Positions 26,801 through 64,000 of a stretch of 64,000 bases of DNA are shown piece by piece (the first letter of the stretch is position 1; each line of letters opens with the position of its first letter). Below the pieces are notes generated by a model. That model made no database searches and was not told the DNA's origin. It was given only the letters and a program-made list of their open reading frames with translations. Made by a program: the position numbers and the translations under genes. This DNA is from Cafeteria roenbergensis (taxonomy: Eukaryota; Sar; Bigyra; Bicosoecida; Cafeteriaceae), in NCBI GenBank assembly GCA_008330645.1, contig VLTN01000031.1, positions 359,729 to 423,728 of the forward strand, given 5' to 3'.

Positions 26801-29800
26801 CCTCGGCGGGTTCCGCGTGGTGGCCGGGAACGCCGTCACGAAGCGAGTGGTGAACGAAGACGACCTCTCAGTGTCCTTGGTCAAGACTGTGGACACCTTC
26901 TCCGTGAGCCCCGCGGACGGCACCGTGTCCGTGAAGCGCGGCGGGGCAAACCTCGACGCGGAGGCCCAGAACGTCGTCCGGATGTCGGTTGCTGCGGGGC
27001 CGCGCAGGCACGACAGCGGATGGCTGCCTCTGCACAGCATGCAGCGCGACGGCGAGGAGGGCTCCTACCGGGAGCTCTCGCTCGCGCCACGCTTCGCCAC
27101 AATGGACCCCGCGCTGGTGCGGGTTGACGTCATCTTCCGCGCAGCTGACGGCGTGAACGAGGGCTTCTGCTTCCGATCCAAGGGGAGCTCCAGCTGGGAC
27201 GACGACGACACCACCTGGAACTACTACGGAGGCGCCCTCAGCGCGTACGCCACGGGCGGGGCGGTGCCTCGCGGCGACGCGGCGCTGGACCAGCGGTGGG
27301 TCCAGGACCTCCAGCAGGCAAAGACCGCGGACGTCCGTCCCGGCGGCGCAGTCACGGCCGGCGTCACGCTCCCCGCGAGCGCGGCCGCCAATGCCAGCGC
27401 GGTGACTCCGCCACGTGTTCGCCTGTGGGCTCCCACGCACGGGAGGTTCGCCCGCGGGGCAATGGTCAACCTCGGCGGCGGGCAGGGCGCGATGTTCGAC
27501 GCCGACCGGAACTTCCTCGGCGAGAGCCATACCCAGCGCAGCCACCGCACCGAGGCGCGCGTGTTCGCGACGGAGGAGCAGCCCCCCGACTTTGACTCCG
27601 GGTGGATCATGGTGGAGTCGATGCGGGGCGCGGGCACCGACCGGCACGTTCGCCACGGGCTGAACGGGTTCCCGGACCGAACGCGCGTGCTCGTGCGGGC
27701 GGTGAGTGGGCCCAACGCCGGCTTCGTGTTTGAGGCCAAGGGCGACGGCCTCAGCCGCGACTACTACCTCAACGACTACGGAGGCGTGGTGGCGGCGGTC
27801 ACCGCCACCAGCGTGGAGCTCTACCCAGCAACGAGCCGGTCCGGCATGAACTCGGCCTTCTCGATCAAGGTGCCGAAGCGCGGGTACGGGCACGGGGCCG
27901 CCACGCAGCACTCCTTCGCGGCCGAGGTGCGCGTCCTGGCCTGGCGCATGGGCCTGCAGCCGCCGCCGGCATTCGTGTCGGACTGGCTTGACACGGAGTT
28001 CGTGCAAGGAGGCAACGGCTTCGCCGAAGTGACGCTCCCGGCGTCGCTCGTGGAGGACGGCCCGCCGTCCCGGGTGGAGGTGTGGGTGCGCAGCCGGCAA
28101 GGCGAGGAGATGCTGGTGCCGTCCGTGGGCATGTCCGAGAACTACGCGCACGTCTACTGGTACGCGACCGGCGGCATCGTCGCCGCATTCTCCAACTCGT
28201 CCGTGCGCATGTGGGCCGGAGGGCCGGATATCGGCCGCGACGAGTTTCCCAGGACGGAGATGCGCCCCATGGGCACGTCCTACGGGTGGTACTACACCGG
28301 CGGAGGCGTGGTCTACTCCACCATCGCCACCGTGCAGGTCCGCGCCTGGGCGGCCGATAGCTCAGGCCAAGCCGACATCGGGGAGGTGCAGGTGGATGTC
28401 GTCGACGTTCAGGAGCCGCCCACCGTGTCCGACACGTTCATGTTCGTCGCGGAGAGCGTGGGGGGCTCCACGCCCAACGGGCACTCTGTCGGCGTCGTCA
28501 GCGCGTCCGACGACGACAGGGACTCCCAGCTGTCGTTCCAGCTGCTCAGCGGCAACCCAGGCGGGTCGCTCTTTGCCCTAAGCAGCTCTACCGGCGAGCT
28601 CACGGTGGCGAACCAGTCGCTCCTGGACTTCGAAGCCTTCCCCACCGGCATCGACATGCTGGTGCGCGTTTCCGACGGCACGTTCGAGGGGGTGTCGCGC
28701 GTTCACGTGGAGGTGACCAACGTGAACGACCCCGTGGACGTCTTCGAAGCCAACATGTCCGTCCCCGAGAACCTGGCCTTGAATGCCCTCGTTGGGAACC
28801 CGATCGAGGCCACAGACCCTGACGTGGACCAGACCATCCTGTTCTCCGTCATCCCGGAGTTCAATCCGATGGGGGCGGTGTCGATCAACAAGTGCTCGGG
28901 CCAGCTGCGCGTGGCCAACCCGGCAGCCTTCAACTACGAGCTGTACCCGGACCACCGCATCGTGGTGCGAATCCTGGCGGTGGACGACGGCTTCCCGCAG
29001 ACCAACGACACGGCGGAGGTGATCCTGAACCTGATCGATGTGAACGACAGGCCACGCCTCAACGGGACGGAGCTGCTCGCCCCCGAGAACGCGCTTGCGG
29101 GAGAGCTCGTGGGAGTCATCCCGGCGTTCGACGAGGACAACGACACGCTGACGTTTGTGATCAGCAGCGGCGACTCGGCCGGCATGTTTGAAATCGCGGT
29201 GGATGGGCTGGACGCCGTCGGTCACCCCCGGCACGTCCTGCGCATGAGCCCGCGCGTGGTGGCGTGGGGCGAGGGGTCGGGCCGCTTGGACGCCGCCCAG
29301 TCAGCGTCCAGGGCCCCGGGCGGAGCGGCCAGCGTGGCAGGCCTTGCTGCTGCCCCCGGGAGCCAGCCCGGGCTCGTCCTCGACTTTGAAGACGCGCTGC
29401 GGCCAAGCCGGCAGTTCAAGCTCCAGATTGTGGTGTACGACGACGCGGAGGGCACCCTGGACACGCGGAGCGACGTGTTCTTCTACACAGTGTCGGTGGG
29501 CGACCGGAACGACGCCCCGCTTGCACCAGCCACCCAGACGCGGGCGGTGTCGGAGAACGTTGCTTCAGGAACGCCGGTCGGCATCAGGCTGACGGCCTCG
29601 GATCAGGACGCCCTCGACCTCGGCGTTGCGGGCGGGCGGGCCGACGGGCTGGTGTGGTCGTGGCACCCGGACTTTGACGCCAGCTCGCTGCCATTCGCGC
29701 TGAGCCCGTCGGGAGCCATCACGGTGTCGCTCCTGCCGCCGGCCAGCGGAGAAGCCAGCATCGACTTCGAGCGCCGCTCGGTGTACACCGCACGCGCGGT

Positions 29801-32800
29801 GGTCACAGACTCCGGGGGCGCTGCGGCCACGCTGCTGGACGAGAGCGCCGACCTGGGCGCGGCTCGCACTGCTCTTGCAGGCAAGCGCGCGCGGGTGCCA
29901 ACCGGGGCTCTGTCCCAGCAAGTCAACATCACGATTGCCGTTGGCGACGTCAACGAGCCTCCTGTCGTTGGCGACGGCGTTCTGCGCATCGACGAGGCCA
30001 GCCCGCCCGGCACGGTCGTGGGGTGGCTCAACGTGTCAGACCCCGACGCAGCTGATGCCGGGCTGCTGCAGGTGACCATTGACTCGGACACAAATCCGCT
30101 GGAGGCATTCGCGGTGATCACCTCCGCCAACGGCACGTTGCTCACCGTGGCGCGGGACGTCATCGACTTCGAGTCGCGGCCGAGCTACAGCCTCCGGGTG
30201 ACGGCCGTGGACGGGGCTGGAGTGAATGCCACCGGCATCGTGCAGGTGCTCGTCAACGACCGCAACGACCCGCCGACGTTCAACTCCTGCCCGAGCAGCG
30301 CCAACTCGCCGGTGGAGTACCGCACCTTCCTGGGAGTGTCCGCCGTCCAGGCCATCGTCCCGTCGCCCGGCGGCGCTGACGAAGTGAACACGTTCTGGTT
30401 CTCGCGCGTGACGGCCTTTGGCGACGACGCGGAGGCATGCGAGACAGCGTGCACCAACAACCCGGTCTGCGAGGCGTGGACGCTCTTCGGGAGCGCCTAC
30501 CCGCAGCTGGACTGGCGCGGCCAGTGCGTGGGCCGCTCCGGCTTCGCCTCTGTGCTGGCTGCCGTTGAGACTGGCGCAGCGTCGCCGCAGACCGGGGCGC
30601 CCGCCTCCCGCCCGGCCAGCGCCTTCCAGGTTCGCACCGGCGTCAAGGTGCGCGCCTGCTTCCGGGTCGAGGTGGACGAGAACGTGGGCCTGCCCTCGAG
30701 CTTGCCCGAACTGCTTGGTTGGCCAGTGAACGTGAGCGACTTTGAGGGCTACCCCTTCGTCCTCAACATCACAACGGACACCCAGAACGATGTTTCGGGG
30801 CCCCAGGCCTCAGCGGCGCTGTTTGAGCTTGTGGAGCTCGGCCCTGCCATCTTTCCGGGCGCCCCCATGGGAGCCCGCAGCTTCGGCCTGCACATCCGCG
30901 ACCCTGCCGGCCTTGACTTTGAGGCGTCCGCAAGGCACCTGGTCACCGTGCGGGCAACGGACGACCCCGGCGCCTCCTCCGGCGAGCTCGTCGCCACGTC
31001 CACCGCCGTGCTCGCCATCATCGTCCGCGACGTCAACGAGAGGCCAGTGTTCCCGTTTGCCCTCGGCGCGAGCGGGCTGCCCGCCACGAACCGCAGCGTG
31101 GTGGAGCGCGACCCTGCCGGCACGCAGCTCGGCTCGCCCGTCGTGTGCACTGACCAAGACGCCGACACGTCGCTCACCTACTGGCTGGACGTCAACGAGG
31201 GCGGCTACTTTGCGATCGACCCCTCCTCTGGCCAGCTCTCTCTCGCCTCGGACATGACAGCGACGTTCCCGCACGTGTTCGAGCTGCGAGTGAGTTGCTC
31301 AGACGGCTCCCTCAACGCCTCGGCTGTCGTCACCCTGCCCGTGATCAACACCAACGCCCGGCCGACCCTAGAGGGCGCGTCGGCGCAGCGGTCGCTGCAG
31401 GAGAATGCCCCGGCTGGCTCGCTGGTGACCGCCTCTGCCGCCCTCTCCGTCTCCGACCCGGACATGGGCGACACTCACACCTGGAGCATCGTGTCCACGA
31501 GCCCCGCTTCGGCCACTGGCCTGGTGGTCATCGACGAGCGAACCGGCGCGCTGCGGGTTGGGCCTGCCGCCCCCCGCGACGTGTTCAACTTCGAGTGCAG
31601 CCGCGACTACCCCGAGCCCCAGTGCCCTGCCTCCCATCGCACCCTCCGCCTCGGTGTGCACGTCACCGACAGCGGCGTTGGAAACCTCACCGACAGGGCC
31701 GACGTCGTCATCGCAGTCACGAACCAGCAGGAGGGCGTGGCGCTGCCGCTGCCAGGCTCTCGGGGCACCACTCCTGGCCTGGCGACGGTGGAGCTGCTGC
31801 TCGAGGTGCGCGAAAACTCCGCGCCTGGCTCCGCCCTGCTGTGGGCCCCGATGCTCTCCGACCCGCTGTCGCTGGGGGGCGCCGCCCCGGAGGCCGACTT
31901 TTACGACGACGACAAGACTCCCATTGGCTTTGCGTGGCAGGGAGTCGGCAGCCCGCTGCTGCCTCGAGCGTCCGTTGCGGGCGGCCTGGGCGGGGACGCA
32001 GTCGATCCGGCTGCCGTGCTGGTCGTGGTGTCGGCGAACCGCTCTGCAGCCGCAGCCGGAAGCGCGGTTGGGCCCGGCGACGGAAGCAGCAGCGACCCGC
32101 TTGCGGGGCTGGACTCGGAGCAGCTTCGCGTCTTCCTCAACCGCTACCCTTCCGGGCAGACGCCGGCCTTCAGCCTCGCGGCGTCCGTTCCCGAGTCGCT
32201 GCTGAGCCCGCTGCCCGACTCGCGCGGCATGGTGCTGGACCACGAAGCCACGCCCGAGCTGCGCCTGACTCTGCAAGTGGACGACGCTGGCGGTCTGCCG
32301 GCCGTCACGGTGCCGGTACTGCTGCGAGTGCTGGACCAGCCGGAGCGGCCGGTGTTCTTCGCAAGCGTGCCCGAGGGCGTCGCAGGCCCCGGCGGCCTGT
32401 CGCCGGGGGACGGGGGCGCCGGACCGGCCGCTGTGCGCGGGCCCGGGCAGCTGTCGGCTTCCGTCCCCGAGGGCTCCCCGGGCGACATGCTGGTGGCCGA
32501 CCTGGGCCGGGTCGCCTTCGACCCCGACGGCGACGCGCTCTGGTTCTCCCTGGTGTCGGTGCTGCAGCTGCGAGCCTCTGGGGACGTGGTGCCCGAGCTG
32601 CCGGATCCCCTGACCGGCCAGCTGGCCGCCACGTTCGCTGTCGACGCGAGCAACGGCACGCTGGTTCTCCGGCCGCCGGCCTTTGGCCTCAACTCCGTGG
32701 TGGACTTTGAGTCGTTTGTCGGCTACAACGTGACTGTCCGCATCGCGGACCGCCAGCTGGCGACCGACCCCGACCTCCAGTACGTTGAGGCGCTCGTCCA

Positions 32801-35800
32801 GGTGTCGGTCACGGACGTGAACGACATCACCATCACCTCGGTCAAGTCGCCGAGGGGGCCGATGCTCACGCCGGGCGGGGAGCCGGTCGTGATCCAGGGC
32901 ACAAACCTGGGGTTCGCTCACGCGATGCCTGCCGGCCTCCAGCCCCAGCTCCACGTCCAGTACGGGTGCGAGCCCCGCCAGCGGGAGGGAGACCCCTCCT
33001 CCCCCGCCTCCGGCCCTTGGGTGCCCGCCACGGTCGGCCCAGACCCGTTCGATTCCGCGTGCCGGTTTACCGCTCGCAGCTGCAGCATCACCACGCCAGG
33101 CTCGGAGATTACGTGCTTGAGCGACGAGGGCGCGGGCCGCAGGCACCGCTGGCGGGTCACCGTCACCTGGGCGGCGGGCGGCGGCCAGCCCATGAGCCGG
33201 CACTCCAACCCCTCCGCGGAGTCTGAGGACTTTCCCCAGTCGACCAGCTACGCGCCCCCCGTCGTGAGGGCTGTGGCCTTGGCCGACCCGGGCGGGCTGC
33301 GCACCGTGGGCGGCGGCCTGGTGCGCATTCAGGGGCGCAACCTTGGGCCCGCCGGGTCCGCGGCAGCCGGGTCCATGTCCGCGCGCATCGCTCCCGGCCC
33401 CATGGCAGCGGCCGTGGGCGCGGTGGCCCGCACGATCACTGTGGCGCCGCTCCCCTTTGAGGGCAGCACCAGCGCTGCCACGGGCATGAGCGGCTGCCGA
33501 GTCCTCAGCCACACCGAGGCCGAGTGCCGCGCCGGCGCGGGCGTCGGCACCGGGTACTTCTGGGTCCTCTCTGTCGAGGGCCAGGCTTCCGAGACGCGCG
33601 CCCAGTACGAGGCAGCGCTGCAGGGGCTCGCCCCCGACGACCGCGCTCCTGTCAGCGCCATGCTCGTCGACTACCGCCCGCCCACCGTGGGGTTCCTCAG
33701 CCCCGCAGCCTCGCAGCAGAGCGGCGGCGGGTTTGCTGCGAACCTCTCTTCGCTCACCACTCGCGGCGGCTCCAGGCTTCTTGAGATCACCGGCGAGGAC
33801 TTCGGCCCCGCGCCGCCCATGGCGCCCGCCGGCGTGAGCCCCATTCCCTCCAGCGGCGGCGTGGATCCCCTGCTCGCGCCCCTGGCCACGATGGTGGGGG
33901 ACCGCTTCGAGGTGACGGTGACCTGCGCTGTGGCGCCGCAGCTGGAAGAGGCCGGTGGCCCCGGCAGGCACACCAAGCTGCTCTGTGACGTGCCCCCCGG
34001 CGTCGGTCGCAGCTTCCGCTGGTGCGTCGTCATCGGCGGCCAGCTCTCCAATGCCTCCACCGAGATGACTCACTATCGCGCTCCTGACGTTTCGCGCGTC
34101 TTTGGCACGGGCGCCATCGCCTCTCCCACCAGCGGCGGGTCCACCATCCTGATCGAGGGCGACAACCTCGGGCCGCTCACTCTGCCAAGGGGCTTTGCTG
34201 GCGACGAGCTTCTGCCAGTGGACTGGGCGGCGTACGGGCGGCCGCAGCTTCACGCCGGGGGGCGCCTGCCGCCGCCGCCGGAGGCGGCCGTTCCGGGCGA
34301 GTCTCCGCTCGCTGGCTGGATCCGCGCGTCGGGCTGCACCGTGATTACCGCACACACGCTGGTCAAGTGCGTGACTGGCGAGGGCGCGGGGGCCTCCCTC
34401 GCCCTGCAGCTGTCGGTGGGCGGGCAGCGCTCCGAGGTTCGGCCTTCGGCTGTGAGCTACGGCCCGCCGTTCGTCACCCTCACGAGCGGGGAGGCCTCGC
34501 CGGCTGCCCGCACGTCCGGCGGGCAGACGGTGGTCCTCCACGGTGCGAACATGGGACGCGATGCCACCACCCTGGACGTGGTCTCGTACGGCCCCACGGG
34601 CGCGGAGTTCGAGGCCATCGGCTGCGTGGTGCAGGAGCCGCACCGCTCGCTGATGTGCACCACCCCGGAGGGAGCGGGGAAGGACTTGCGGTTTCGAGTG
34701 GTGGTGGCCGGGGTGGAGAGCGCCGCCCCGCGGACGCAGTACGCGCCCCCGCAGCTGGACGGGGTCAGGCTGCTCAACGCCACCGCCCCCGTGCAGGCCG
34801 CGCTGGAGGGGCTGCACACTCGCGGCGGCCAGCGGTTCGAGCTGCACGGCACCAACCTGGGCGCGGCGTGGGTGGCCTCCGGGTTCTCGTACATCGACCG
34901 GGTGGCCTACGGGACGTACGAGCTCCCCGCCGCCATGTGCAACGGGTCCCTGCCGGAGCACGACCGTCTGGAGTGCGTGACGCTGCCCGGCGTCGGCCTG
35001 GGGCACGGCGTGCAGGTCTCGGTCGGAATGCAAGACTCGGGGCCGACGGGCGTCTCCCTCTCGTTCCAGGCGCCGGAGCTGCTTGCGGCTGTGCTGCTGC
35101 CACCGGCAAGCAGCGCGACCCCAGCGCCGGACGGGTACGGCCAGCTCGCCGCCTCGAGCCCGCGCACGCACAGCACAGTCCCAACGTCTGGCGGCGCAAT
35201 TCGCATCGTCGGCACAAACCTCGGCAGAGCCCTTGACGGCCTGCGCGTGTGGGCGGGAACGGAGCCGGCGACCAAGGCCGCGAGCCCCATCACGTTCGCA
35301 GAGCTGCCTTGTGACAAGGGGGGCGACAGCGGGGGGTCCGTGGAGGTGCCCGCCGAGTGGCTGCCGGCGTTTGAAGCCGCCTTTCCGCGGCCGAGCCAGC
35401 CCTCGCTGCTGGTCCCAGGCGCCGCCTCCTTCCCGGTCACCGCGTTCGCCCGGGGGCTCTACTGTGCCGACGTCCTTCTTCCTGCGGGCGACGGGCGGGG
35501 CCGCGAGCTCTGGGCCGAGGTCGGCGGCCAGTCGAGCCAGCGGCTGACCTACAGCTTCGCCGACCCGTTCGTGCGCGACCTGGTCGTGATCGAGGACCCA
35601 GAGGACTCCGTGAGGCGCGTGGTCGTGCTCAAGGGCGGGGACTTTGGCCTGCCCGCGACGGGCAAAGTCCTGGTCGGCGCTTGCGTGGCCAGCAACGCGA
35701 CGCGCTTCAAGGAGCTCGCGGCGCGGCCTGACGGCGGCAGCGCCCTCATCGAGGACTGGGAAATGGAAGAGGCGGCCCGCGCAAGCATGGCCGCAGAGGA

Positions 35801-38800
35801 ATCCGAGCCGGGCGTGGTTCGCGTGAACTGCGGCGGCGGCGGGGCGTCCTCGCTTCCGGTCGTGACCATGGTGGAGTGCGTCGTCGACGGGGCGGGCACC
35901 GGCGCTGGCGCCACCCTGTGGTCTCACGCTCTGGTGCGCTGCCGCATCCCTCGGGTTCGCCAAATGGACGACGCCAGCGGCGGAGCGGAGGCCGGGCCGC
36001 TCCGGCAGGGCGTGGTGGTGGCGGTGGCAGGGGTGGACCGGCGGCCCACCCGGGCGCATGTGTACACGGAGTCGTCGCCCGTCGTGACCCAGCACTCCCC
36101 CACGCAGTCCCCGTCGGCTGGCGGCGGCGAGATGAGCGTGGAAGGCGAGTTCCTCTCCGGCTGGCCGAACCGCGCCGCCGTCGGCGTCGACATCCGCAAC
36201 GACTCTCTGGCCTTCCTGAGCGACCCTGCCAGTCCGGCCGCGTGGGCCGCCTGTCCCGTGGTCCCGGGGACCTACCGCGAGCTGCGCGACGACGGCGAGG
36301 AGTGCGACGTCGCCACGAGCGAGGCCGGCCTCTGCGTGCCGCGGACCCGCCAGAGGGCCCGGCTGCGGTGCATCGTGCCGCCTGGCGTGGGCTCGTCGGC
36401 AACGGCCGCCATGCGCCTGCGCCGCTTCGAGCAGACCAGCGAGGAGGCCGCCTTCGCCTACGCGCCCCCCTCCGCCGTGCGCTTGCTTGGCCGGCCAGCC
36501 ACCGCTGCGGGCGGCTGGGCCACTGCCGGCGGGCCCCGCGTGCACCTGGAGGGCTCCGACTTTGGCGTGACGCCCGTGGTGCAGATGACGTCGTTCTTGA
36601 CCGGCGGGTGGGTTGCGGTCCCCGCGGCTGACGTTTCGCTGGACGACGCGGCGGGCCACACGAAGCTGTCGTTCAGGCTGCCGGAGGGCTCGGGGCGGGC
36701 GAGGGCCGTGCGGGTGGTGGCGGGCGACCAAGCGAGCGATGCGCTGGTGATGTCGTACGACCCTCCCCGGCTCGAGCCGTCCTGCACGGTGCCCCGCACG
36801 CTCTCCGGCGACACGCGCGGCGGCCTGGTTGTCACGCTGTGCGGGCTGAACTTCGGCCCGCGCTCCCTGTCCCTCCTGGCGCCGACCAACGGCACAGCCG
36901 CCGTGCCAGCCAACACGAGCGCTGCGCGCAGCTACGTCCAGGTCGCCGGCGCCATCGTGCCAGCCCTGTCCTGGAACCACACGCACGTGTCCTTTGCCAT
37001 GCCGCCCGGCCAGGGCGTGTCTCTCAGCATCGTGGTGACGGTGGATGGGCAGCGGTCCGACGAGGCGCCGCAGGGGTCGTCCGGCTCCGGCAGCGGCGGC
37101 GGCTCCTCGGTGCCCGACGTCCCTTCGCTGCGGTTCACCTACGAGCAGCCGGAGCTCCACTTCGTGGCCCCGCTCGAGGGGCCCACCTCTGCCGTGGACG
37201 CGACCTCCGGCGAGCGCCAGGTCCTTGAGCTGCAGGGCCGCAACTTCGGCACGGATCCCGTGCTGCGCTTCGGCGGCGCGGAGCTGCCCCTGATCGAGGC
37301 CTCCCACACGCGGGTGCGCGCCTACATCCCGCCCGGGCAGGGCTCCTCCTCTGTGGAGCTGGTGGCGGGAAACCAGACCTTTGCCTCCATCCCGCGCTTC
37401 GTGTACGACAGGCCGCAGGCGACGCTGCTGCTGGCCGCGCTTGCAGGCCGCACCGACGCGTGCGGCCGGCTGGAGGACGTTCGCCTGTGGCGGTCGCGCC
37501 TGGGCGTGCTGCCCGCCTCTGGCGACGGAAGGCGCCTGTGCTGCGCGCCCCAGACCCTCCGCATCGTGGGCCAGTCGTTCGGCGTGCGGGCGCCCACTGT
37601 GGTGATGTCCGCGCCGTCGTCCCTGCCGCTGGCGGCCGCAGCCGCAGCCGGGCTCACGGAGGAGAGTTTGAGCAAGACGGTGTCGCGAACGTGCGCCGAG
37701 GTCGAGAGGGACGTCGACGCCAGCTGGGCAGGCAGAGCCTTCCTCAACGCCACCGGGTGCGTTCCTTACGAGCCCTGCATCCAGAGCCACTCGCACTCGC
37801 AAGTGCTGCTGCGCGCGCCGCCCGGCCAGGGGACGGGCATGTCAGTGACGGTTCTGGTGGACGAGCTGGAGGACGGCGCGGTCGTGGAAGGCCGCACAAG
37901 GCTCAACGCCACTCTGCCGCCGCCCGGCTTCGGGTTCAACCCGCCCGTGATCCAGCAGGTGGAGTCGAGCCCCCTGGACGGCCTGGGCGCCATCGTCACG
38001 ATGCGCGGGCTCAACCTCGGGTTCGACGACGCGCTCTTCCGCACCTTCGCCTACGGGGACGTCGACGCGCCGCTGCCCTACGCGGGCCTTCAGGCGCAGG
38101 CGGCCGCGGAGCGGGCCAGGCGCGAGGCGGAAGGCGCTGCGGCCACCAGCGGCGCCAGCGGATCCGGCGACCGCGCCGCGACCGCGGCCACCAGCGCGCC
38201 CCTAGCCGCGCCGTCCAGGCAGCGCTCTCTGCAGGTGGACGCCGGCGGGGACGCGGGGAGCGGGAGCGGCGGGCCAGCCGCGACGGGGCCGCAGCGGACG
38301 GACGCTGCCCGAAGCGTCCTGTCAGTCCGCGTGTCAGGCCAAGAGTGCGACGCCCTGGACTGGGTGCGGGACACGCAGGCGGGCGACCCCAAGGGGGCCG
38401 CGCCGTACCTCCGCTGCCGCCTGAACAGCGCCCCTGTGGGCAGACACAACCTCAGCGTCACCGTTGCGGGCGTCACCCGCGTTCACCTGGCCGAGGTCGA
38501 GACCCTCGTTGTTAGCCAGTGCTTCGAGGGCGCGTACGGAGCCACGGGGGAGACGTGCCTGCCCTGCCCGACGGGCGCGACGTGCCCAGGGACCCCGGTG
38601 GAGCCGGTTGCGCTTCCCGGCTTCTGGAGAGAGGAGATGCCCCCGAGCGACCCGTTCTTCAAGCAGCTCTGCCCGCCCGCCCGGCAGGACCGGCCCACGT
38701 GCCCCCTGCTGGTGTCGTGCGTACCGGCGTCGGCGTGCCTGCGCAACAACACGTGCGCGCTGGGCTACGAGGGCGAGCGCTGCTCCCAGTGCCTGCGCGG

Positions 38801-41330
38801 GCGGTACTACCGCGTGGACGGCGAGTGCATCGAGTGCCCGCAGAACCCGGAGCTGATCCTGGCCGCGTTCGTCGTCGGGGTGATCTTCGTCTGCATCGGC
38901 GCCTACGAGATGAACCGCCGCCAGCTGAACCTGGGCTGGATCGCCATCGGGCTCGACTACTTCCAGGTGCTCTCGCTCTTCGCGAACGTCAAGGTGAGCT
39001 GGCCGCCCGCGCTCAAGGAGCTGTTCCGCATCCTGTCCGTGTTCAACCTCAACCTGGACCTCACGGCCCCCGAGTGCTGGGCGGAGGGCATCACCTTCAC
39101 GATGCGCTGGTACGCCACCATCGGCATGCCGGTGGTCGCGGCGGCGCTCATCGGGCTTGTGTGGATCTCCAAGGTGCTGTGGACGCGGCTGGTCAAGTGC
39201 CAGAAGCTCGAAACCATGGGCGACGCCTCCGACAGCCTGGCCTCCGCCCTTACGACCATCTACTACGTAAGCTACCTCCTCCTGGCGCGAGCAACCGTGG
39301 ACGTGCTTTCGTGCGCCCCGTCGCACCCGCCCGACCCGCGCGGCCGCGTGTTCATGGAGTCGACCGCCATTCCCTGCTTCGAGGCGGGGGGCGAGCACCT
39401 TGCCATGTTCCCCTTTGCCGTTCTCGCGCTCGTGGTCTACAACGTCGTCATCCCCGCGGTCATTCTGCGCTTCCTCCACTCCCAGCGCGAGCTGGTGAAG
39501 GAGGACCAGTACCTCCGGGCCATGGACACGGGCGACACGCCCTCGACCAACCCCAACGCCCTGCGCATCCGCAAGCGGTGGATGCGCCTTTACTACCTGT
39601 TCAAGCCCAGCTACTGGTGGTTCATCCAGGTCATTTTCGCCCGCAAGCTTGGCCTCGCCTTCGCCGCCCTGGCCTTCCGCTCCGCCCCCTCCTTGCAGCT
39701 CGCAGTGGCGCTCATCGTCACATTCTACTCGTTCGTCCTCACCGTGCGCCTGCGCCCCTACCTCTGCTGGGGGGAGGCCAAGTCCGTCTTGTCGGAGCAC
39801 GAGCGCATGGCTGCGCTGGGCTCCCCCCTGCACTCCAAGATCAACATGACGCTGCGGTCCGTCAGAGCGACGCTGCGCGGCAACGCCATGCGGAACCGCG
39901 GCAACGACCTGTGGCGCAGCGCGGGCGGCAGGAAGGCGCGCGAAGGCAAGGCTGGCAAGGCAGCAGCGGGCGGAGGCGCGGCGGGCGCGCCAGCGGCGTC
40001 TGGCGTTGGGGCCGAACAGGCCCTCCGCGTGCTCAGGCGGCAGAGCCTGCACTCGAACCTGAACACCATGGACAGCGTGCTCATGGCCTGCGCGTCCCTG
40101 GTCACCCTGGGGGGGCTGCTGTACGAGGCGGGCGAGTTCAGCGAGCGCGACGCCTCTGCCGAAACGCTCGCGGTGACCACGCTCATCGCCGTGGTGATGA
40201 TCACGGGCGCGCTGTACTTCCTCGGCGCCGCCGCCGTGGAGCTGCTGGCCGAGGTCCGCCCGGGGACCTGCCTCAAGCCCAAGATTCGCTCCCGCGCCAG
40301 CGCGGTGAGAGGCGGCAAGCTTGCCAAGAAGGCCGGCCAGGCAGCGGTGGCCGACAAGCCGGCTGCACTGAGCGTCGACGAAGCGGCGGGAAGCTCGTCG
40401 GGCGCCCTCGACGGCTCTGACAGCGGGGCGGCCACCGGCTCTGCCGGGCGAGGCGCGGAGCGGTGCGGGTGCCTCGCCAGGTCGCTCGGGCGGCTGCCCT
40501 GCGCTGCGGCCATCCCCGTCGAGGACCCATTCCTGGCGGGCCAGGCGCGCTCTCCGCGCCGCAGCCCCCCAGTTGGATCGCCCGGCCACCCGGCCCGCGG
40601 GCGGCCCGCGTTCACGTTTGGGGGCGGCGGCGCGATGCGCCCGTCGCCGACGGATTCCGCAAAGCCGCTTGTCAGCTCCACATCCGAAGGCGGCTTTGCC
40701 ATGACGAACCCGATGGCGGCGGCCGCGGCGTCTCCGGGCGCCGAGGCAGCCGCCGGCATGGGCCTGTCTGGCGTGGGGGTCAACCCCGTGATGGCCCGGG
40801 CCATGGAGGAACAGCGCCGGGAGGAGGCGGAGCGGCGCGCCGAGCGGACCAAGGACTCGAACCTGGTGGCTGCCAAGCTTCCGAGCGAGCCGCCTGCGCG
40901 GGACGAACTGGAGCTGTGGCTTGAAAAGTTCGAGAAACTCAAGGCGCAAGCCGACGACCTGGGGCAGAGGATCCGCGACGCAACCAAGGAGGGTGCGGTG
41001 GGCGGAGAGATCGCCGCTCTTGTGGCCGCAGGGCGCCACCGCGACAGCAGTGGCGGCTCCTCGGGCCACCAGGAGGCTGCGGCTCTGGCCAGAGCCGCAA
41101 TTGCCCGGAAAAAGCTCGCGCGCGACGTAGGCAGCAGCGTGAGCATGCCGACAGGCGCCAACCCGCTGTTCGCCGCGGCGGGAGCCAAGGCGGCGCTGGG
41201 GCGCCGGCGCACCGGGTCCGGCCCTCGCAGCCGGGGCCGCGGGGCTGCGGCCAACCCGCTCCTTCGTGCCGCATCCACGCGTCGGGCGGCGGCGGCGGCG
41301 GCGGCGACACGCAAGCCGACGGACGCCTGA
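20846..41330 (+). CDS. Giant LamG/cadherin/TIG multi-pass surface protein (~6707 aa)
   Basis: Exon 1 (20846-21008) encodes a signal peptide (MRVLAYVMTYSLIASAVAG) and the start of a LamG domain. Splicing to 21370 restores GSSFTIEAWFM, the LamG core. Modules in order, by approximate residue: LamG 25-210; Cys-rich repeat CGDG...EQCDDG 262-308; LamG-like 525-672 and 995-1215; a segment with CHDRGLRLCDFWSYC and a jelly-roll-like part 1317-1693; three copies of an unrecognised domain 1935-2382; about ten cadherin repeats 2393-3875 (DVNDRP/DRNDPP linkers) interrupted by a PAN/apple-like Cys insert near 3028-3155; about fourteen IPT/TIG domains 3875-5770 (TSGG...GTNLG); a Cys-rich EGF/GCC2-like segment 5770-5882; about eight or nine membrane spans to 6352; and a low-complexity cytosolic tail. 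It is probably an adhesion or sensory receptor with a huge ectodomain; its ligand is unknown. The C-terminal design recurs in the gene at 43782. Confidence 0.82.
21009..21369 (+). other. Intron of the giant surface protein gene
   Basis: Donor G|GTGAGC, acceptor CCCGCAG|CA, and a CTGATGA branch-like motif 10-16 bases upstream of the acceptor. Phase 1. Joining restores an uninterrupted LamG strand (FTIE-AW), strong evidence that the splice is real. Confidence 0.85.
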
Positions 41331-59120: not shown

Positions 59121-61227
59121 ATGGCCACCCATGCTACGAATGAGCGTGCAATGGCGAGCGCGATCTGGGAGGCGGCGAGTGCCGGGGATACCGCTGAGAC
59201 CCGTAGGCTGCTCGATGAGGGCGCGCCGGTGGACTGCAAAAACGATGCCAACGTGAGCGCTTGCTGTCACGGCGTGGCGCCTCCCCCGTTCCCAAGGGCA
59301 AGGAGCGCGATACCGCAAGACATGCGTCTCTCTCCCGCCAGTTGGGCTGCTGCACCACGGCTCGCGCGGCAAGACATGTGGGGCGGTCCGGAACGCTGGG
59401 GCAACGAGGCGGTGTCATGGCGAGCTGGGCGCCGCTGGGTGGCTCACGAGAGGCCACGCCGGTCGCCTACTGCGAGGGCTGAGTTTGTCGGGGGCACACA
59501 ACCTCGCAGGATGGCTCTACGGCGCTTGCTGCTGCTGCATCCGGTGGCCACAAGGACACGGTGGAGCTGCTGCTGGACCGGGGCGCCAACCTGAGGGTCA
59601 AGGGCCCCGTGAGTGCGTGTTGCTTGCGACGGGCCGCGCCAGGCGTCACGGGCGGGCGCGAGAGGACGATGGCAATGGTGCGTGGGGGCGTCGTGGTCCT
59701 GTCGCGGTCCGGCATGTGAGGCAGCGCTGGCGGGGGGGAGATGTCGGCAGGGGAGCGATGGTGCGACGCAGTGCGGTGACATGCGGGCCCGCGACGTCGC
59801 AGGGTGGGTTTACGGCGCTTGTCTCAGCAGCACGGTATGGCCACAAGGACACGGTGGAGCTGCTGCTGGACCGGGGTGCCTACCTGGAGGCTAAGGGCTA
59901 TGTGAGTGCGGCGGTCGAGTGTTTCTGCGCGACGGGCCGCGCCGGGCGTCACGGGCGGGCGCGAGGGGACGATGGCAATGGTGCGTCGGGGCGTCGTGGT
60001 CCTGTCGCGGTCCGGCGTGTGAGGCGGCGCTGGCGGGGGGGGCATGTCGGCAGGGGAGCGATGGTGCGACGAGGTGCGGTGATATGCGGGCATGCGGCGT
60101 CGCAGTATGGTGGTACGGCGCTTGTGCTGGCTGCATCCGGTGGCCACAAGGACACGGTGGAGCTGCTGCTGGACTGGGGCGCCAACCTGGAGGCCAAGGG
60201 CCGCGTGAGTGCGGCGGCCGTGTGGTGCTGCGCGACGGGCCGCGCCAGGCGTCACGGGCGGGCGCGTGGGGACGATGGCAATGATGCATCGGGGCGTCGT
60301 GCCCCTATCGAGGGCAGGTGTGGGAGCAGGCGCTGGCGGGGGGGGTATGCCGGAAGGGGGCGATGGGTGCGACGAGGTGTGGTGACATGCGGGCCCGCGA
60401 TGTTGCAGCGATTGGGCACAGCGCTTGTTCGTGCTGCATGGCGTGGCCACAAGGACACGGTGGAGCTGCTGCTGGACCGGGGCGCCGACCTGGAGGCCAA
60501 GGACTATGTGAGTGCGGCGGTCGTGTGAAGCTGCGCGACAGGCCGCGCCAGGCATCACAGGCGGACCGGTGGGTGGCAGTGACGATGGCGAGCTGGGGCG
60601 CCGTGTCCTGTGGGGGGCGAACGTGTGAGGCAGCGCTGGCGGGGGGGAGATGTCGGCAGGGGAACGATGGTGCGACGAGGTGCGGTGACATGCGGGCCCA
60701 CAACATTGCAGGATGGTGGCACGGCGCTTGGTCAGGCTGCATCTGGTGGCCATGAACATCGTTGGGGGGGGTCGAAAACTCGCGTAACCATACCACACAC
60801 TCGATTCACAGACTCACCAATCACCAATCCAGCAACTCCATCACCGATGAGTCACAAACCGCGCCAAACCCGCAATCCCAAGTCTCAAGTCCCAGATCCC
60901 TGCCATCACACTGCCTCGAGTCGCCACACAGCCGCCCCTGCTCACCGCAAACGCTCCACCTGTGAACATCGTTGGGGGGGGTCGAAAACTCGCGTAACCA
61001 TACCACACACTCGATTCACAGACTCACCAATCACCAATCCAGCAACTCCATCACCAATGAGTCACAAACCGCGCCAAACCCACAATCCCAAGTCCCAAGC
61101 CCAGATCACTCCCATCACACTGCCTCGAGTCGCCACTCAGCCGCCCCTGCTCACCGCAAACGCTCCACCTGCTGTCGCAGGTACTGCGTCTGCCCGATCA
61201 GCTGGGTCGCCAGTCCCTTGGCGATGA
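59121..61227 (+). CDS. Ankyrin-repeat protein, interrupted by a retroelement
   Basis: Exons: 59121-59252, 59510-59608, 59803-59901, 60106-60204, 60409-60507 and 60712 onward; all introns are phase 0 with GTGAGC/GTGAGT donors and GCAG acceptors. Exon 1 encodes 44 residues (ASAIWEAASAGDTAETRRLL is a cap-like ankyrin helix pair). Each of the next four exons is exactly 33 codons, one full ankyrin repeat, with the conserved core GHKDTVELLLD and variable residues around it. The last exon breaks after DGGTALGQAASGGH at 60752, where the retroelement tail begins. The plus frame stays open through both 210-bp tail copies (each adds 70 codons in frame) and stops at 61225-61227. Ankyrin arrays are protein-binding scaffolds; the partner is unknown. 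The original 3' part of the gene, if it survives, is outside the window. Confidence 0.8.
59510..60752 (+). repeat. Tandem exon+intron units encoding ankyrin repeats
   Basis: Exon starts at 59510, 59803, 60106, 60409 and 60712 give spacings of 293, 303, 303 and 303 bp: a 99-bp exon plus a 194- or 204-bp intron. Introns are as alike as exons (shared GACGATGG, GCTGGCGGGGGG and GCGACGAGGTG blocks), so whole exon+intron units were duplicated. The fifth unit is cut at 60752. Confidence 0.9.
60753..61171. repeat. 210-bp tandem duplication of the retroelement 3' tail
   Basis: Copy 1 is 60753-60962 and copy 2 is 60963-61171, almost identical (a few substitutions and one base of length). Each begins TGAACATCGTTGGGGGGGG on the plus strand and ends CGCTCCACCTG, so each includes the last codons and the stop of the minus-strand coding region. 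The second boundary abuts the first directly. Confidence 0.95.
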
Positions 61228-63998
61228 CCTCGTTCAGCCTCGACAGCCAGCGGAAGGCCCAGCGCGCACGCTCCCTCGGCCGGTCGCCAAAGGCCGTGTC
61301 CGCCACCTTCTTGAGGAAGGCGAAGGCCGCCGGTCCCATGCGTCCCGTGGTCGTGATGACGAAGGGCACAATGGAGCTCATGTTGTCCTTTGTAGCTGAG
61401 CTCTTCTTGTACTCCCTCATCTTGTCATTCTCACGGCGCTCGAGAAAGGCGTCCATGTTCTGCAGGCCCTGCGTCACGTAGGACTTGCTCACCGCCGAGG
61501 TGATCTGCACGTCGACGAGACGGGTGGTCTCGAAGTCGACGTGCACCCGCAGGTCCGGTCGCTTGCGCGCGGCCTCGCTGGACCCCGGCTGGGATCCAAA
61601 GCGCGCCTGACCGTCCTGCCAGCTGGAGGGCTCCACCACCGACTGCAGCCCCGCCGAGCGCACCGCCGCGTGCAGGACGTCGCGGACGTCGTTGTGCGCC
61701 CGGATGGTGGAGCCCTTGCCGCAGCGGCAACGCGCCAGGTGGTGCGCCACGCCGGAGACCCCGCCGATGTGGACAGTGCCTCTCGCGGTGGTGTCTCGCT
61801 GCATGCACGCGCAGTTGATCGACACGCCGTCCGGCACCACGTGGTCGGCCTCGGAGGCTCCAATGCGGTAGCGTTCCACCACCGCAAACTCCTCGTCCGT
61901 GAGCCCGCGGGGTCCCATCATCGTGTTGCGGAGCCAGTAGTGCGTTCCCGGCACGCATGCCTCCCGGAACGCGACCAGGTCGCTCATGACGCGGAACATG
62001 GCCGGGTCGTCGATGTTGGCGACACGCTTCTCCGTCGTGCCCTTGGCCAGCGCCTCGGCCCTGCAGCGTGCTGTGCAGGCCCTGCGCGCCTTGGCCAGAC
62101 GGCGCAGGAAGGCGCACTCGTGCTTGATGCGCAGCATGTCGTCGTGGTGCAGCACCATCTTGCGCTGCAGGGCGCCTCGGTCTGCTCGTTCGCCCGCGCC
62201 GTCACCCCGTCGCCGTACAGGCACTTGCGGAGCTTGGCCTTCAGCTCGCCCGGCAGCTTACCCAGGGTGTCGGGCAAGAAGCCCTCGAACCCTGTCGCTG
62301 CGGCCAGGCAGCGGGCTCCCTTGCATGCCCTGATGAACTCCTCCACCAGGTTTGCAGTTGCCTCCATGTCATCCGACGACTCGTCGTCAGATCTGAGCTC
62401 CATCATCGCCTCCAGCGCCAGCTCCTCGATCTCGGCGCGCAGCTCTTCCAGGCCCTCGACAGCCCCCGCGATGTCCGACCTCCACACGTGCGCCAGCTGG
62501 TAGCGCTTCTTCACCCTGGCGTCATGAAGGTCGGCCTCCTTGCCCACGACGCAGTCCTTGTCCGGCCTGAAGTACCGTGCCTCGGTGCAGGCGTCCTTGT
62601 ACTCCTTGCTGTCCCGCTCGTAGTCCCGGTAGGCTCCCTTGGCGACCTCCTCGCATCGCAGCAGGATGTCGCCCACCTCCTTGGTCGCATCGCTGCGGTC
62701 TGAGCGCTTCAGCGAGCTCCTCACGAGTTTCTTGAGCGAGATGCCCTTCCAGTTGGGGTCGTTGCCGTCCGCGTCCGCGTCGGGTCCGTCCCTGGCCAAC
62801 CCGATCGCCGGCGTTCGCCTGACCGAGTAGACCTGTGCCGCATCCGCTCTCGGCTGTGCGGCATCAGATGTCTCTTGGCCGGTTGGAGCGCCAGCCGCAC
62901 TAGCTGCCGCTGCGCCGCCGCCGCTCGTCGTCATCTCGGTCGCCGCTCCCGCCGCGCTGGCGGCAGCCGCACCTCCGCCGACCGTCTGGCCTCCGCTTGT
63001 CGGTGTTGGCTGATGCCCCGGTTCAGCCGCTCCCCCGTACCGCTGACGAGCCAGCCGTCCAGCGTACCTGCAAGCTGCTGCCCGTGCGCCGGCCCCTCCT
63101 CGCAGTCCTCCTTGGACTCGCTCTCTCCGACCGCCGGGTGGTCCACCCACGGCGTGCCGCCCGCTGCAGCAGCCGCCGCACCCGACTCATCCTCCGCTTC
63201 CGCCTCGCCGGCGTTGGCTGGTCCCGCTCCGGCACCACTCCCCGACGCCGCTTCGCCTCCGCCTCCACCAGTGCCGGGTCCGTCGAGGGCCTCCTCCGGC
63301 GGTGGTGCCATCTCGAACCGCCCTTTCCGCATGTCTCGAACGGCCTCGATGAAGCCCGCTGTCGCCTTCGAAGCGGAACTGCGCCACGCCAGGCAGGCCC
63401 ATGCCCCCGGCTTTGCAGCCCCTGCTCAGCATCTTTGCCAGCCTCATCTGAGCGTAGCCTCCCTTCTTCAAGGCCGGGTTGGACGCTGCCGATGCGAGCC
63501 GAGTCACACCGTCGGCTTCCCGGCCCAGGGAGCGCCCACCACGCCTCCGCCTTGCGTGCTCGTCCGGCAGCCCCCGAACAAGCGCCTCGATGGCCTTGGA
63601 CATGGCCTCACGGAAGCCGTCCTCGGTCACCGTGCACATCTCGTCCGAGAGCGCGTGGCCGATCGCATCCAGCTCCGTCTGGTGTGCCACCGCGACAGGT
63701 TGGCCACAGCGCCGCGTGGAACACCGCCAGCTCCTGACCCGCCGCCGCACCCGCTGCTCTTGTGCAGGTAGCTGAACTTCTGGCCCACCACTGACAGCAG
63801 CAGGTGGTGCGCCCTCCTTTGAGCGCAGCAGACATCGATGCCCGCGAGGCAGGCGCTCCGCCCGCCGGCCCGAACTCCTTCTCCAGTGGCCACCTCCGGC
63901 GAGGTCCGCTCCCACAGGACACTGCAGCACCGCCACGCTCCGTTCGGTGAGGTGGCACCCCTCCAGCACCGAGGGTGGGGACCCTGGATCGTCCCTAC
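61151..63998 (-). pseudogene. Frame-disrupted reverse transcriptase / endonuclease polyprotein
   Basis: No single frame spans the region. Near the right edge SVAVLQCPVGADL resembles the RT VLGxPxGS motif. PLEKEFGPAG and then RRAHHLLLSVVGQKFSYLHK, in different frames, resemble the thumb. GGMGLPGVAQFRF (about 63370-63415) resembles the GGLGLR block that follows the thumb. A Gly/Ala/acidic linker shifts frame again near 63320 and near 63060, then a helical region (DARVKKRYQLAHVWRSDIAG) runs to another shift at about 62165-62185. The last frame (62150-61151) is intact: CACM...HHLARCRC zinc-knuckle, HNDVRDVLHAAV, then KRPDLRV and LVDVQIT spaced like PD-(x)n-D, YKKSSATKDN, VPFVITTTGRMGPAAFAFLK and a terminal LRQQVERLR. 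At least four frame changes imply a decayed copy, unless assembly errors are frequent. Confidence 0.7.
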
Positions 63999-64000
63999 TC

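What the first reader, a model, noticed from the sequence alone, without database searches (positions are those of the whole stretch)
59510..60752. Ankyrin array grown by duplicating whole exon+intron units, one repeat per exon
Four successive exons are each exactly 99 bp, start and end in phase 0, and encode one 33-residue ankyrin repeat. The three latest unit starts are exactly 303 bp apart. Introns are as similar to each other as the exons, so the units duplicated recently and intact. Phase-0 modular units can be gained or lost without breaking the frame, an unusually clean natural design for a length-variable binding protein. The framework (TAL, GHKDTVELLLD, GA) is fixed, while residues at the turn tips and inner helix (the usual ankyrin contact surface) differ between copies.
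Basis: partly seen in the sequence, partly recalled or inferred. Interest (0 to 1): 0.82.

Follow-up and report, generated by a model that had tools for sequence, protein, structure and literature searches.

The report
Hypervariable ankyrin gene family, exon-per-repeat arrays
A marine protist appears to carry many ankyrin genes built from repeated exon-plus-intron blocks, in which the likely binding residues vary far more than the introns around them, as expected of a repertoire of recognition proteins; the copy in this window is a member that has lost its end.

Summary
Exons 2-5 (59510-60507) are 99 bp, phase 0, AG|GT-flanked, one ankyrin repeat each, 293-303 bp apart. It is one of at least 22 such arrays in this 36.3-Mb genome: 260 of 272 profile hits are intact 99-bp exons, and 148 of 232 spacings are not multiples of 3, so only splicing keeps the frame. 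Eight of 21 loci modelled are complete: N-cap exon, 5-32 units, C-cap exon. N-cap and C-cap searches give 106 and 100 matches.

The 'duplicated intact' reading needs correcting. Introns are homogenised within arrays, but exon codons 1-12 and 33 are hypervariable: unit pairs with both flanking introns at most 2% diverged differ in exon sequence in 16 of 17 cases. Replacement divergence at recalled ankyrin contact positions exceeds intron divergence in 19 of 19 arrays. The window's copy is cut off in exon 6 by a retroelement-like sequence.

Assembly statistics fit Cafeteria burkhardae strain BVI (inferred). Best reading: a diversifying recognition repertoire, convergent with brown-algal exon-per-repeat receptor candidates. 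Ligand unknown; no transcripts seen.

The parts
59121..59252 (+). exon 1: start codon and 44-residue N-cap ankyrin repeat, ends in phase 0
   Evidence: an exon of the same length (132 bp) heads 18 of 21 loci modelled, 129 bp in one, two not resolved by the script
59253..59509 (+). intron 1, not homologous to the unit introns
   Evidence: 48-52% identity to introns 2-5
59510..59608 (+). exon 2, ankyrin unit DGSTALAAAASGGHKDTVELLLDRGANLRVKGP
59609..59802 (+). intron 2 (194 bp), unit intron
59803..59901 (+). exon 3, ankyrin unit
59902..60105 (+). intron 3 (204 bp); as a DNA query it has 184 matches in the genome, the listed ones (about 150) all inside ankyrin arrays
60106..60204 (+). exon 4, ankyrin unit
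60205..60408 (+). intron 4 (204 bp)
60409..60507 (+). exon 5, ankyrin unit
60508..60711 (+). intron 5 (204 bp)
60712..60752 (+). exon 6, truncated after about 14 codons; the frame runs on into the element to a stop at 61225-61227
60753..61171 (-). two tandem 210-bp copies of the 3' end of a retroelement-like sequence joined to the broken array
61151..64000 (-). antisense ORF pieces of the same retroelement-like sequence, running to the end of the contig; family not identified

Best explanation
The window holds a 3'-truncated member of a large family of ankyrin solenoid genes. Each complete gene is an N-cap exon, a head-to-tail array of [99-bp phase-0 exon + about 200-bp homologous intron] units, and a C-cap exon with a basic IQRWxRRR-type tail. 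Long similar introns let units pair out of register, so unequal exchange and gene conversion change unit number and homogenise introns and the exon core. Codons 1-12 and 33 encode the ankyrin beta-turn tips and inner helix, the usual contact surface, and are kept different by selection and by exchange of short cassettes between units and arrays. Shown: gene architecture, genome-wide family, homogenised introns, concentrated surface variability, a signal of recombination or recurrent change inside exons. Inferred: splicing, translation, selection as the cause, and the role. Most likely role: a germline-encoded repertoire of recognition proteins, for non-self (virus or prey) or for diversified partners; no effector domain was found in the one complete member scanned, so they would act as adaptors, sensors or decoys.
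For: Family and anatomy: 22 loci, 260 intact 99-bp exons of 272 profile hits; spacing modulo 3 = 84/78/70 of 232, and a retained intron would break the frame or add a stop in 180 of 232; eight complete spliced frames of 21 loci modelled; N-cap found at 22 of 22 loci (21, C74). Only ankyrin families reach the cut-off in the one complete member scanned. Variability: entropy 2.5-3.0 bits at codons 8, 1, 33, 11, 12, 3, and at most 0.78 at 21 of 33 positions. Within arrays intron divergence is 0.132, against 0.37-0.63 at positions 1-2 of codons 1, 8, 11, 12, 33. pN at seven contact codons fixed from recalled DARPin design exceeds intron divergence in 19 of 19 arrays (Wilcoxon p 2e-6) and whole-exon pS in 18 of 19. 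17 pairs with both introns at most 2% diverged: 16 exons differ, 60 replacement against 20 silent codon changes. C31 against C51, unit by unit: exons 36/396, introns 33/1062, Fisher p 1e-5 (1061 was entered in the test). Exchange: 1045 of 2271 within-exon site pairs fail the four-gamete test; some 24-bp cassettes are identical in arrays whose introns differ by over 20%.
Against: No transcript or protein was seen. Silent divergence at the same seven codons is raised too, so dN/dS above 1 is not shown there; whole-codon replacement by conversion, or a local mutation bias, could contribute. In C31 against C51 whole-exon pN (0.087) is below pS (0.101), only the seven codons reverse this (0.219 against 0.099), and intron 2 alone (17/194) is as diverged as the exons. 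Four-gamete failures can come from recurrent mutation. Sharing of cassettes is limited: 3 of 186 distinct codon 1-12 blocks and 12 of 149 codon 7-14 blocks occur in more than one array. The 17 close pairs come from only five arrays. Intronless ankyrin arrays in the same genome show a milder form of the same surface variability, so it is not peculiar to the exon-intron design. Contigs C10 and C129, probably two haplotypes, are nearly identical through ten units and differ at the array's 3' end, so copy-number polymorphism is weakly supported. No ligand or effector domain.
Confidence: 0.62

Rival explanations
1. Concerted evolution without selection for diversity: unequal crossing over spreads units, the ankyrin framework is conserved, and surface residues are simply unconstrained.
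For: Within-array homogenisation is clear: the nearest neighbour by intron lies in the same array for 85% of 226 units, against 7% by chance. Surface positions vary in intronless arrays here too.
Against: Unconstrained sites should diverge about as much as introns; contact codons exceed introns in 19 of 19 arrays and differ where both flanking introns are 98-100% identical.
Confidence: 0.15
2. Local hypermutation or cassette gene conversion directed at the first 36 bp of each exon creates the diversity, with selection secondary.
For: Silent change is also high in codons 1-12 (third positions 0.25-0.42 within arrays at framework codons 2, 5, 6, 9 and 10, against 0.13 for introns); cassettes such as FRATYHGH and VRAAWRGH shared between arrays with 22-23% diverged introns; unusual T- or A-ending codons mostly in this half.
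Against: In the same block codon 4 is nearly fixed (third position 0.05), third positions of codons 8 and 12 (0.26, 0.19) change much less than their positions 1-2 (0.40-0.63), and framework codons keep their amino acid, so selection must act. No mutator gene or template locus was looked for.
Confidence: 0.18
3. The repeated introns are introner-type mobile introns that spread through the genome, and the array is incidental.
For: Intron sequence is multicopy (184 matches) and GT-AG bounded.
Against: The listed intron matches (about 150 of 184 shown) all lie on the 22 array contigs at unit spacing. The search scored 40 of 95 candidates and skips very common words, so stray copies are not excluded.
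Confidence: 0.02
4. A decaying, non-functional subtelomeric repeat: gene-like arrays amplified passively next to a retroelement.
For: The window copy and five others end at a retroelement-like junction inside the array; five arrays stop at contig ends; seven units have 1- to 3-bp length changes.
Against: 260 of 272 profile hits are intact exons, eight frames are complete with up to 32 intact units, and cap exons match at about 100 places.
Confidence: 0.08

Closest known systems
Brown-algal LRR-ROCO genes (Teng 2024, PMC11378527: abstract and passages seen) and NB-ARC-TPR genes (Zambounis 2012, not held; Teng 2023, seen only as cited in PMC11378527)
   Same: One solenoid repeat per exon of fixed length and fixed phase, tandem exons exchanged, variable sites on the concave surface, proposed immune receptors; also stramenopiles if the host is rightly inferred.
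   Different: There the exon is 72 bp, phase 2, LRR, attached to a ROC-COR domain; here it is 99 bp, phase 0, ankyrin, with caps only and no signalling domain seen.
Fungal NOD-like receptors with highly conserved ANK/TPR/WD repeats (Dyrka 2014, PMC4986451: passages seen)
   Same: Near-identical ankyrin repeats, suggested concerted evolution, positive selection on concave-face and beta-turn residues, repeat-number polymorphism.
   Different: They carry NOD and effector domains; the passages I saw report no one-exon-plus-intron-per-repeat design.
Designed ankyrin repeat proteins (DARPins; PMC8683736 and PMC6590788 passages seen; position numbers recalled from Binz 2003, not found in those passages)
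   Same: N-cap, identical-framework 33-residue internal repeats, C-cap; five of the seven randomised design positions fall on the most variable codons here.
   Different: Artificial; here inner-helix codons 7-8 vary too, and design positions 26 and 33 hardly vary.
Metazoan ankyrin genes such as ANK1 with roughly one repeat per exon (recalled)
   Same: 99-bp exons for single repeats.
   Different: Old, fixed arrays with unrelated introns; no recent unit turnover (recalled).

Membership tests
Ankyrin repeat proteins (PF00023/PF12796) | 33-residue helix-turn-helix-beta-turn repeats matching the profile | tested here: met
   Ank_2 4.6e-46, Ank 1.2e-40 on the spliced C4 protein; hits to ankyrins and DARPins
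Exon-shuffled repeat receptors of brown algae | each repeat in its own exon of constant length and phase | tested here: met
   (from genomic sequence; splicing inferred)
Exon-shuffled repeat receptors of brown algae | diversifying selection at binding-surface sites | tested here: inconclusive
   pN above intron divergence in 19/19 arrays, but silent change at the same codons is also high; no site-model likelihood test was run
Exon-shuffled repeat receptors of brown algae | ROC-COR or NB-ARC signalling domain | tested here: not met
   one complete member (C4): only ankyrin families above cut-off. The other seven complete models were built from caps and units only, so extra exons elsewhere were not looked for
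Exon-shuffled repeat receptors of brown algae | alternative splicing of repeat exons | not testable with these tools
   no RNA data
Fungal NLRs with high internal conservation | NOD/NACHT domain | tested here: not met
   one member
Fungal NLRs with high internal conservation | repeat-number polymorphism between alleles | tested here: inconclusive
   C10 and C129 differ at the 3' end of the array; assembly error possible
Introner elements | the same intron sequence in unrelated genes | tested here: not met
   listed matches lie only in arrays (about 150 of 184 listed; 40 of 95 candidates scored)

The most novel reading that the evidence does not exclude
A single-celled predator with a roughly 100-gene, germline-diversifying ankyrin receptor repertoire: exon-plus-intron units act as exchangeable cassettes whose first 36 bp are actively rewritten between homogenised introns. 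Much of the hypervariable block uses NNT and NNG codons although the long ORF examined in the same window almost avoids T-ending codons (TAT is 1% of its Tyr codons), and arrays are repeatedly broken and recapped by an antisense retroelement, perhaps at chromosome ends. It would be a protist counterpart of immune repertoires, in a host of giant viruses and virophages.
Probability: 0.15. Interest if true: 0.88.

Novelty: new variant of a known kind. Interest (0 to 1): 0.62.

Why it matters
Exon-per-repeat arrays that also diversify their binding surface were known to me only from brown algae (LRR, TPR). Here the same design appears with ankyrin repeats in what is probably a free-living bicosoecid, so modular exon arrays may be a recurrent way for stramenopiles to build variable binding proteins. 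The arrays let two processes be separated in one 300-bp unit: introns record homogenisation, exon surface codons record diversification. If the host is Cafeteria burkhardae, genomes of four strains and transcriptomes exist, so expression, copy-number change and a link to virus or prey can be tested directly.

Tried and rejected
Introner hypothesis: rejected, the listed intron copies are all in arrays (capped list). Recent intact duplication of units as the whole story: rejected by close-intron pairs. Telomere idea: no perfect TTTAGGG x4 or TTAGGG x4 in the genome; other telomere motifs were not searched, and eight of eight other contig ends checked lie inside an array (C60, C20, C29, C88, C2) or the element (C15, C136, C43), so contig-end position may be an assembly break. 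An early impression that contigs C10 and C129 had swapped unit types was withdrawn after pairwise alignment. NNT codons as special to variable positions: weakened, framework codons 2, 6, 7, 9 and 10 in the same half also mostly end in T or A. The minus-strand ORFs gave no Pfam hit, no PDB hit at E below 0.38 (only the 357-residue piece was compared with the PDB) and no phage hit (same piece). Viral contigs: one 42%-identical ankyrin locus, not followed. 18S identification: two attempts gave no answer. A first attempt to pick out intronless repeats found none because the pattern was too strict; searches replaced it. Dropped rows: C129 (nine intact units) left out of the 242-unit set as a copy of C10, and nine units of two other subfamilies (four in C15, five in C136); 226 of the 242 had a usable downstream intron; C51, C2 and C129 are not in the 19-array test (fewer than four usable units, or dropped); C74 was not modelled.

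Full report
What is in the window. Exons 2-5 at 59510-59608, 59803-59901, 60106-60204 and 60409-60507 are 99 bp, phase 0 and AG|GT bounded, each one ankyrin repeat; exon 1 at 59121-59252 is a 44-residue N-cap. TRF reports the array as period 303 with 4.2 copies. Exon 6 breaks off at 60752. The window ends at the end of contig C31.

A genome-wide family. Intron 3 as a DNA query has 184 matches in the window's own 36.3-Mb genome (40 of 95 candidates scored); the listed ones, about 150, fall on 22 contigs at unit spacing. I fetched the 21 other loci. A nucleotide profile gives 272 hits, one of them an edge artefact in C4; 260 are intact 99-bp exons between AG and GT. Spacings are mostly 278 to 325 bp (outliers 253, 332 and 356) and fall in all three classes modulo 3 (84/78/70 of 232), so the frame holds only if the introns are removed. 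This is comparative evidence for splicing, not proof.

Complete genes. Exon 1 lies upstream of all 22 arrays (21, C74). A C-cap exon ending in a basic IQRWxRRR-type tail closes 11 of the 22 (weak in C15, E 0.001). Of the rest, five arrays run into a contig end (C88, C20, C29, C60, C2) and six are broken by a retroelement-like sequence (C31, C51, C68, C79, C61, C136). Of 21 loci modelled (C74 left out), eight are complete from ATG to stop with 5, 6, 9, 10, 14, 17, 21 and 32 units, every unit intact; the 32-unit gene (C15) ends in eight units of a 278-bp subfamily. Across the genome the N-cap query has 106 matches at E 0.01 or better (131 candidates scored) and the C-cap query 100 (107 scored); many come from divergent members whose exon structure I did not examine. 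The one complete member scanned has only ankyrin families above cut-off.

Two halves of one exon. In 242 units the most variable residues are 8, 1, 33, 11, 12 and 3 (2.5-3.0 bits), followed by 7, 15 and 32 (1.9-2.0); 21 of 33 positions are at or below 0.78 bits. Mapped on recalled DARPin numbering, five of the seven randomised design positions are among the top six; the other two (our 31 and 24) are not. Within arrays, introns differ at 0.132 per site; positions 1-2 of codons 1, 8, 11, 12 and 33 at 0.37-0.63; codons 16-30 mostly at 0.0-0.2, with third positions up to 0.30. Seventeen unit pairs with both flanking introns at most 2% diverged (mean 0.9%), from five arrays, have different exons in 16 cases, with 60 replacement and 20 silent codon differences. 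Between the related loci C31 and C51, repeat exons differ at 36 of 396 sites, introns at 33 of 1062 (17 of them in intron 2) and the 5' flank at 41 of 1716.

Selection or mutation. At seven contact codons fixed from recalled design rules, replacement divergence exceeds intron divergence in 19 of 19 arrays and whole-exon silent divergence in 18 of 19. Against a pure selection reading, silent divergence at these same codons is also high, whole-exon silent divergence exceeds intron divergence in 17 of 19, and replacement divergence at the other codons is below intron divergence in only 13 of 19. Exchange of short pieces would explain part of this: 1045 of 2271 biallelic site pairs within exons fail the four-gamete test, and some 24-bp cassettes are identical in arrays whose introns differ by over 20%, though only 12 of 149 such cassettes are shared between arrays at all. 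The nearest neighbour lies in the same array for 85% of units by intron, 64% by the variable exon part and 58% by the core (chance 7%). I read this as homogenising exchange in introns and core, with diversity kept at the contact surface.

A control inside the genome. 45 distinct repeats from intronless ankyrin arrays (five loci) also vary most at surface positions, less strongly (0.376 against 0.541 at positions 1-2 of the same codons). The exon-intron design is therefore not needed for surface variability; it may make unit exchange easier.

Unexplained. The first half of the exon uses many T- or A-ending codons (48% G/C at third positions over codons 1-14, 94% over codons 15-33), while a 6650-residue ORF in the window has 90% G/C at third positions and unit introns are 74% G/C. 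Codons 1, 3 and 12 end in T in 80, 70 and 87% of units. Descent from one ancestral unit is the simplest cause; intronless arrays also carry fixed rare codons, but scattered over the repeat.

The broken end. A sequence beginning TGAACATCGTTGGGGG follows 15 of the 22 arrays (degenerate in C4, partial in C14) and not C88, C129, C10, C20, C29, C2 or C60 in the stretches held; copies also lie upstream of exon 1 in C60 and C61. An antisense ORF goes with it at 12 loci, 91-100% identical to the window's at the 11 others except C136, where it is broken into pieces of 48-94%. It is joined at different points: inside exon 6 (C31, C51), inside introns (C68, C79, C61, C136), or within about 100 bp of the C-cap stop (C155, C8, C55, C43, C12, C15, C14). 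By eye its C-terminus resembles the endonuclease end of non-LTR retrotransposons (recalled); no Pfam family matched and the only PDB listing was E 0.38. In the window the exon-6 frame runs on through it, 172 codons from the exon start including the stop.

Host. The genome has 36,303,456 bases in 167 contigs, the window is 71% GC, and no light-harvesting protein was found. Hackl 2020 gives strain BVI of Cafeteria roenbergensis, in later papers C. burkhardae, as 170 contigs, 36,327,047 bp, 70.1% GC (PMC6972860, passages). I infer the same assembly; no sequence comparison confirmed it. In that species ankyrin-repeat genes as a class are enriched among those raised in stationary phase (PMC7852580, section 13 read); this does not single out this family.

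Prior art. Brown-algal ROCO genes have one LRR per 72-bp, phase-2 exon with four selected concave sites, and are proposed as immune receptors (PMC11378527, abstract and passages). Fungal NLRs have ankyrin repeats under a similar regime, without the exon design in the passages I saw (PMC4986451). My searches for ankyrin exon arrays and for ankyrin in Cafeteria (listings of 20 of 29, 20 of 95, 15 of 29, 2 of 2, 12 of 27 and 2 of 2 papers) listed no title or abstract describing this family; the library lacks most subscription journals.

Noticed in passing
window 60753-64000 and L049-L068: A retroelement-like sequence with a (TGAA)-type 3' end sits antisense at the 3' end of 15 of 22 ankyrin arrays, there with its 3' end towards the array, at many different break points. 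It could be a chromosome-end-healing or subtelomeric element.
   Followed up: partly
window 60753-61171: 210-bp tandem duplication of the element's 3' end (96% matches) that is open in the ankyrin frame.
   Followed up: partly
window 21378-41330 (+): An uninterrupted 6650-residue ORF with laminin-G-like and cadherin domains in the first 2873 residues scanned, probably a giant adhesion protein.
   Followed up: no
L001-L007 and contigs C28, C46, C48, C86: Large intronless ankyrin arrays, many with 102-bp (34-residue) spacing, in the same genome, also with variable surface residues.
   Followed up: partly
L068 191-1446 and C15 (L063/L072) units from 9008: Other exon-per-repeat ankyrin subfamilies with 289-bp and 278-bp units and different framework residues.
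   Followed up: no
exon codons 1-12 of the arrays: Rare T/A-ending codons concentrated in the variable half of the exon in a GC-rich genome.
   Followed up: partly
L057 (C4) 3444-3517 and 3838-3911: Two tRNA-Thr (anticodon cgt) genes on the minus strand just downstream of the C4 ankyrin gene.
   Followed up: yes
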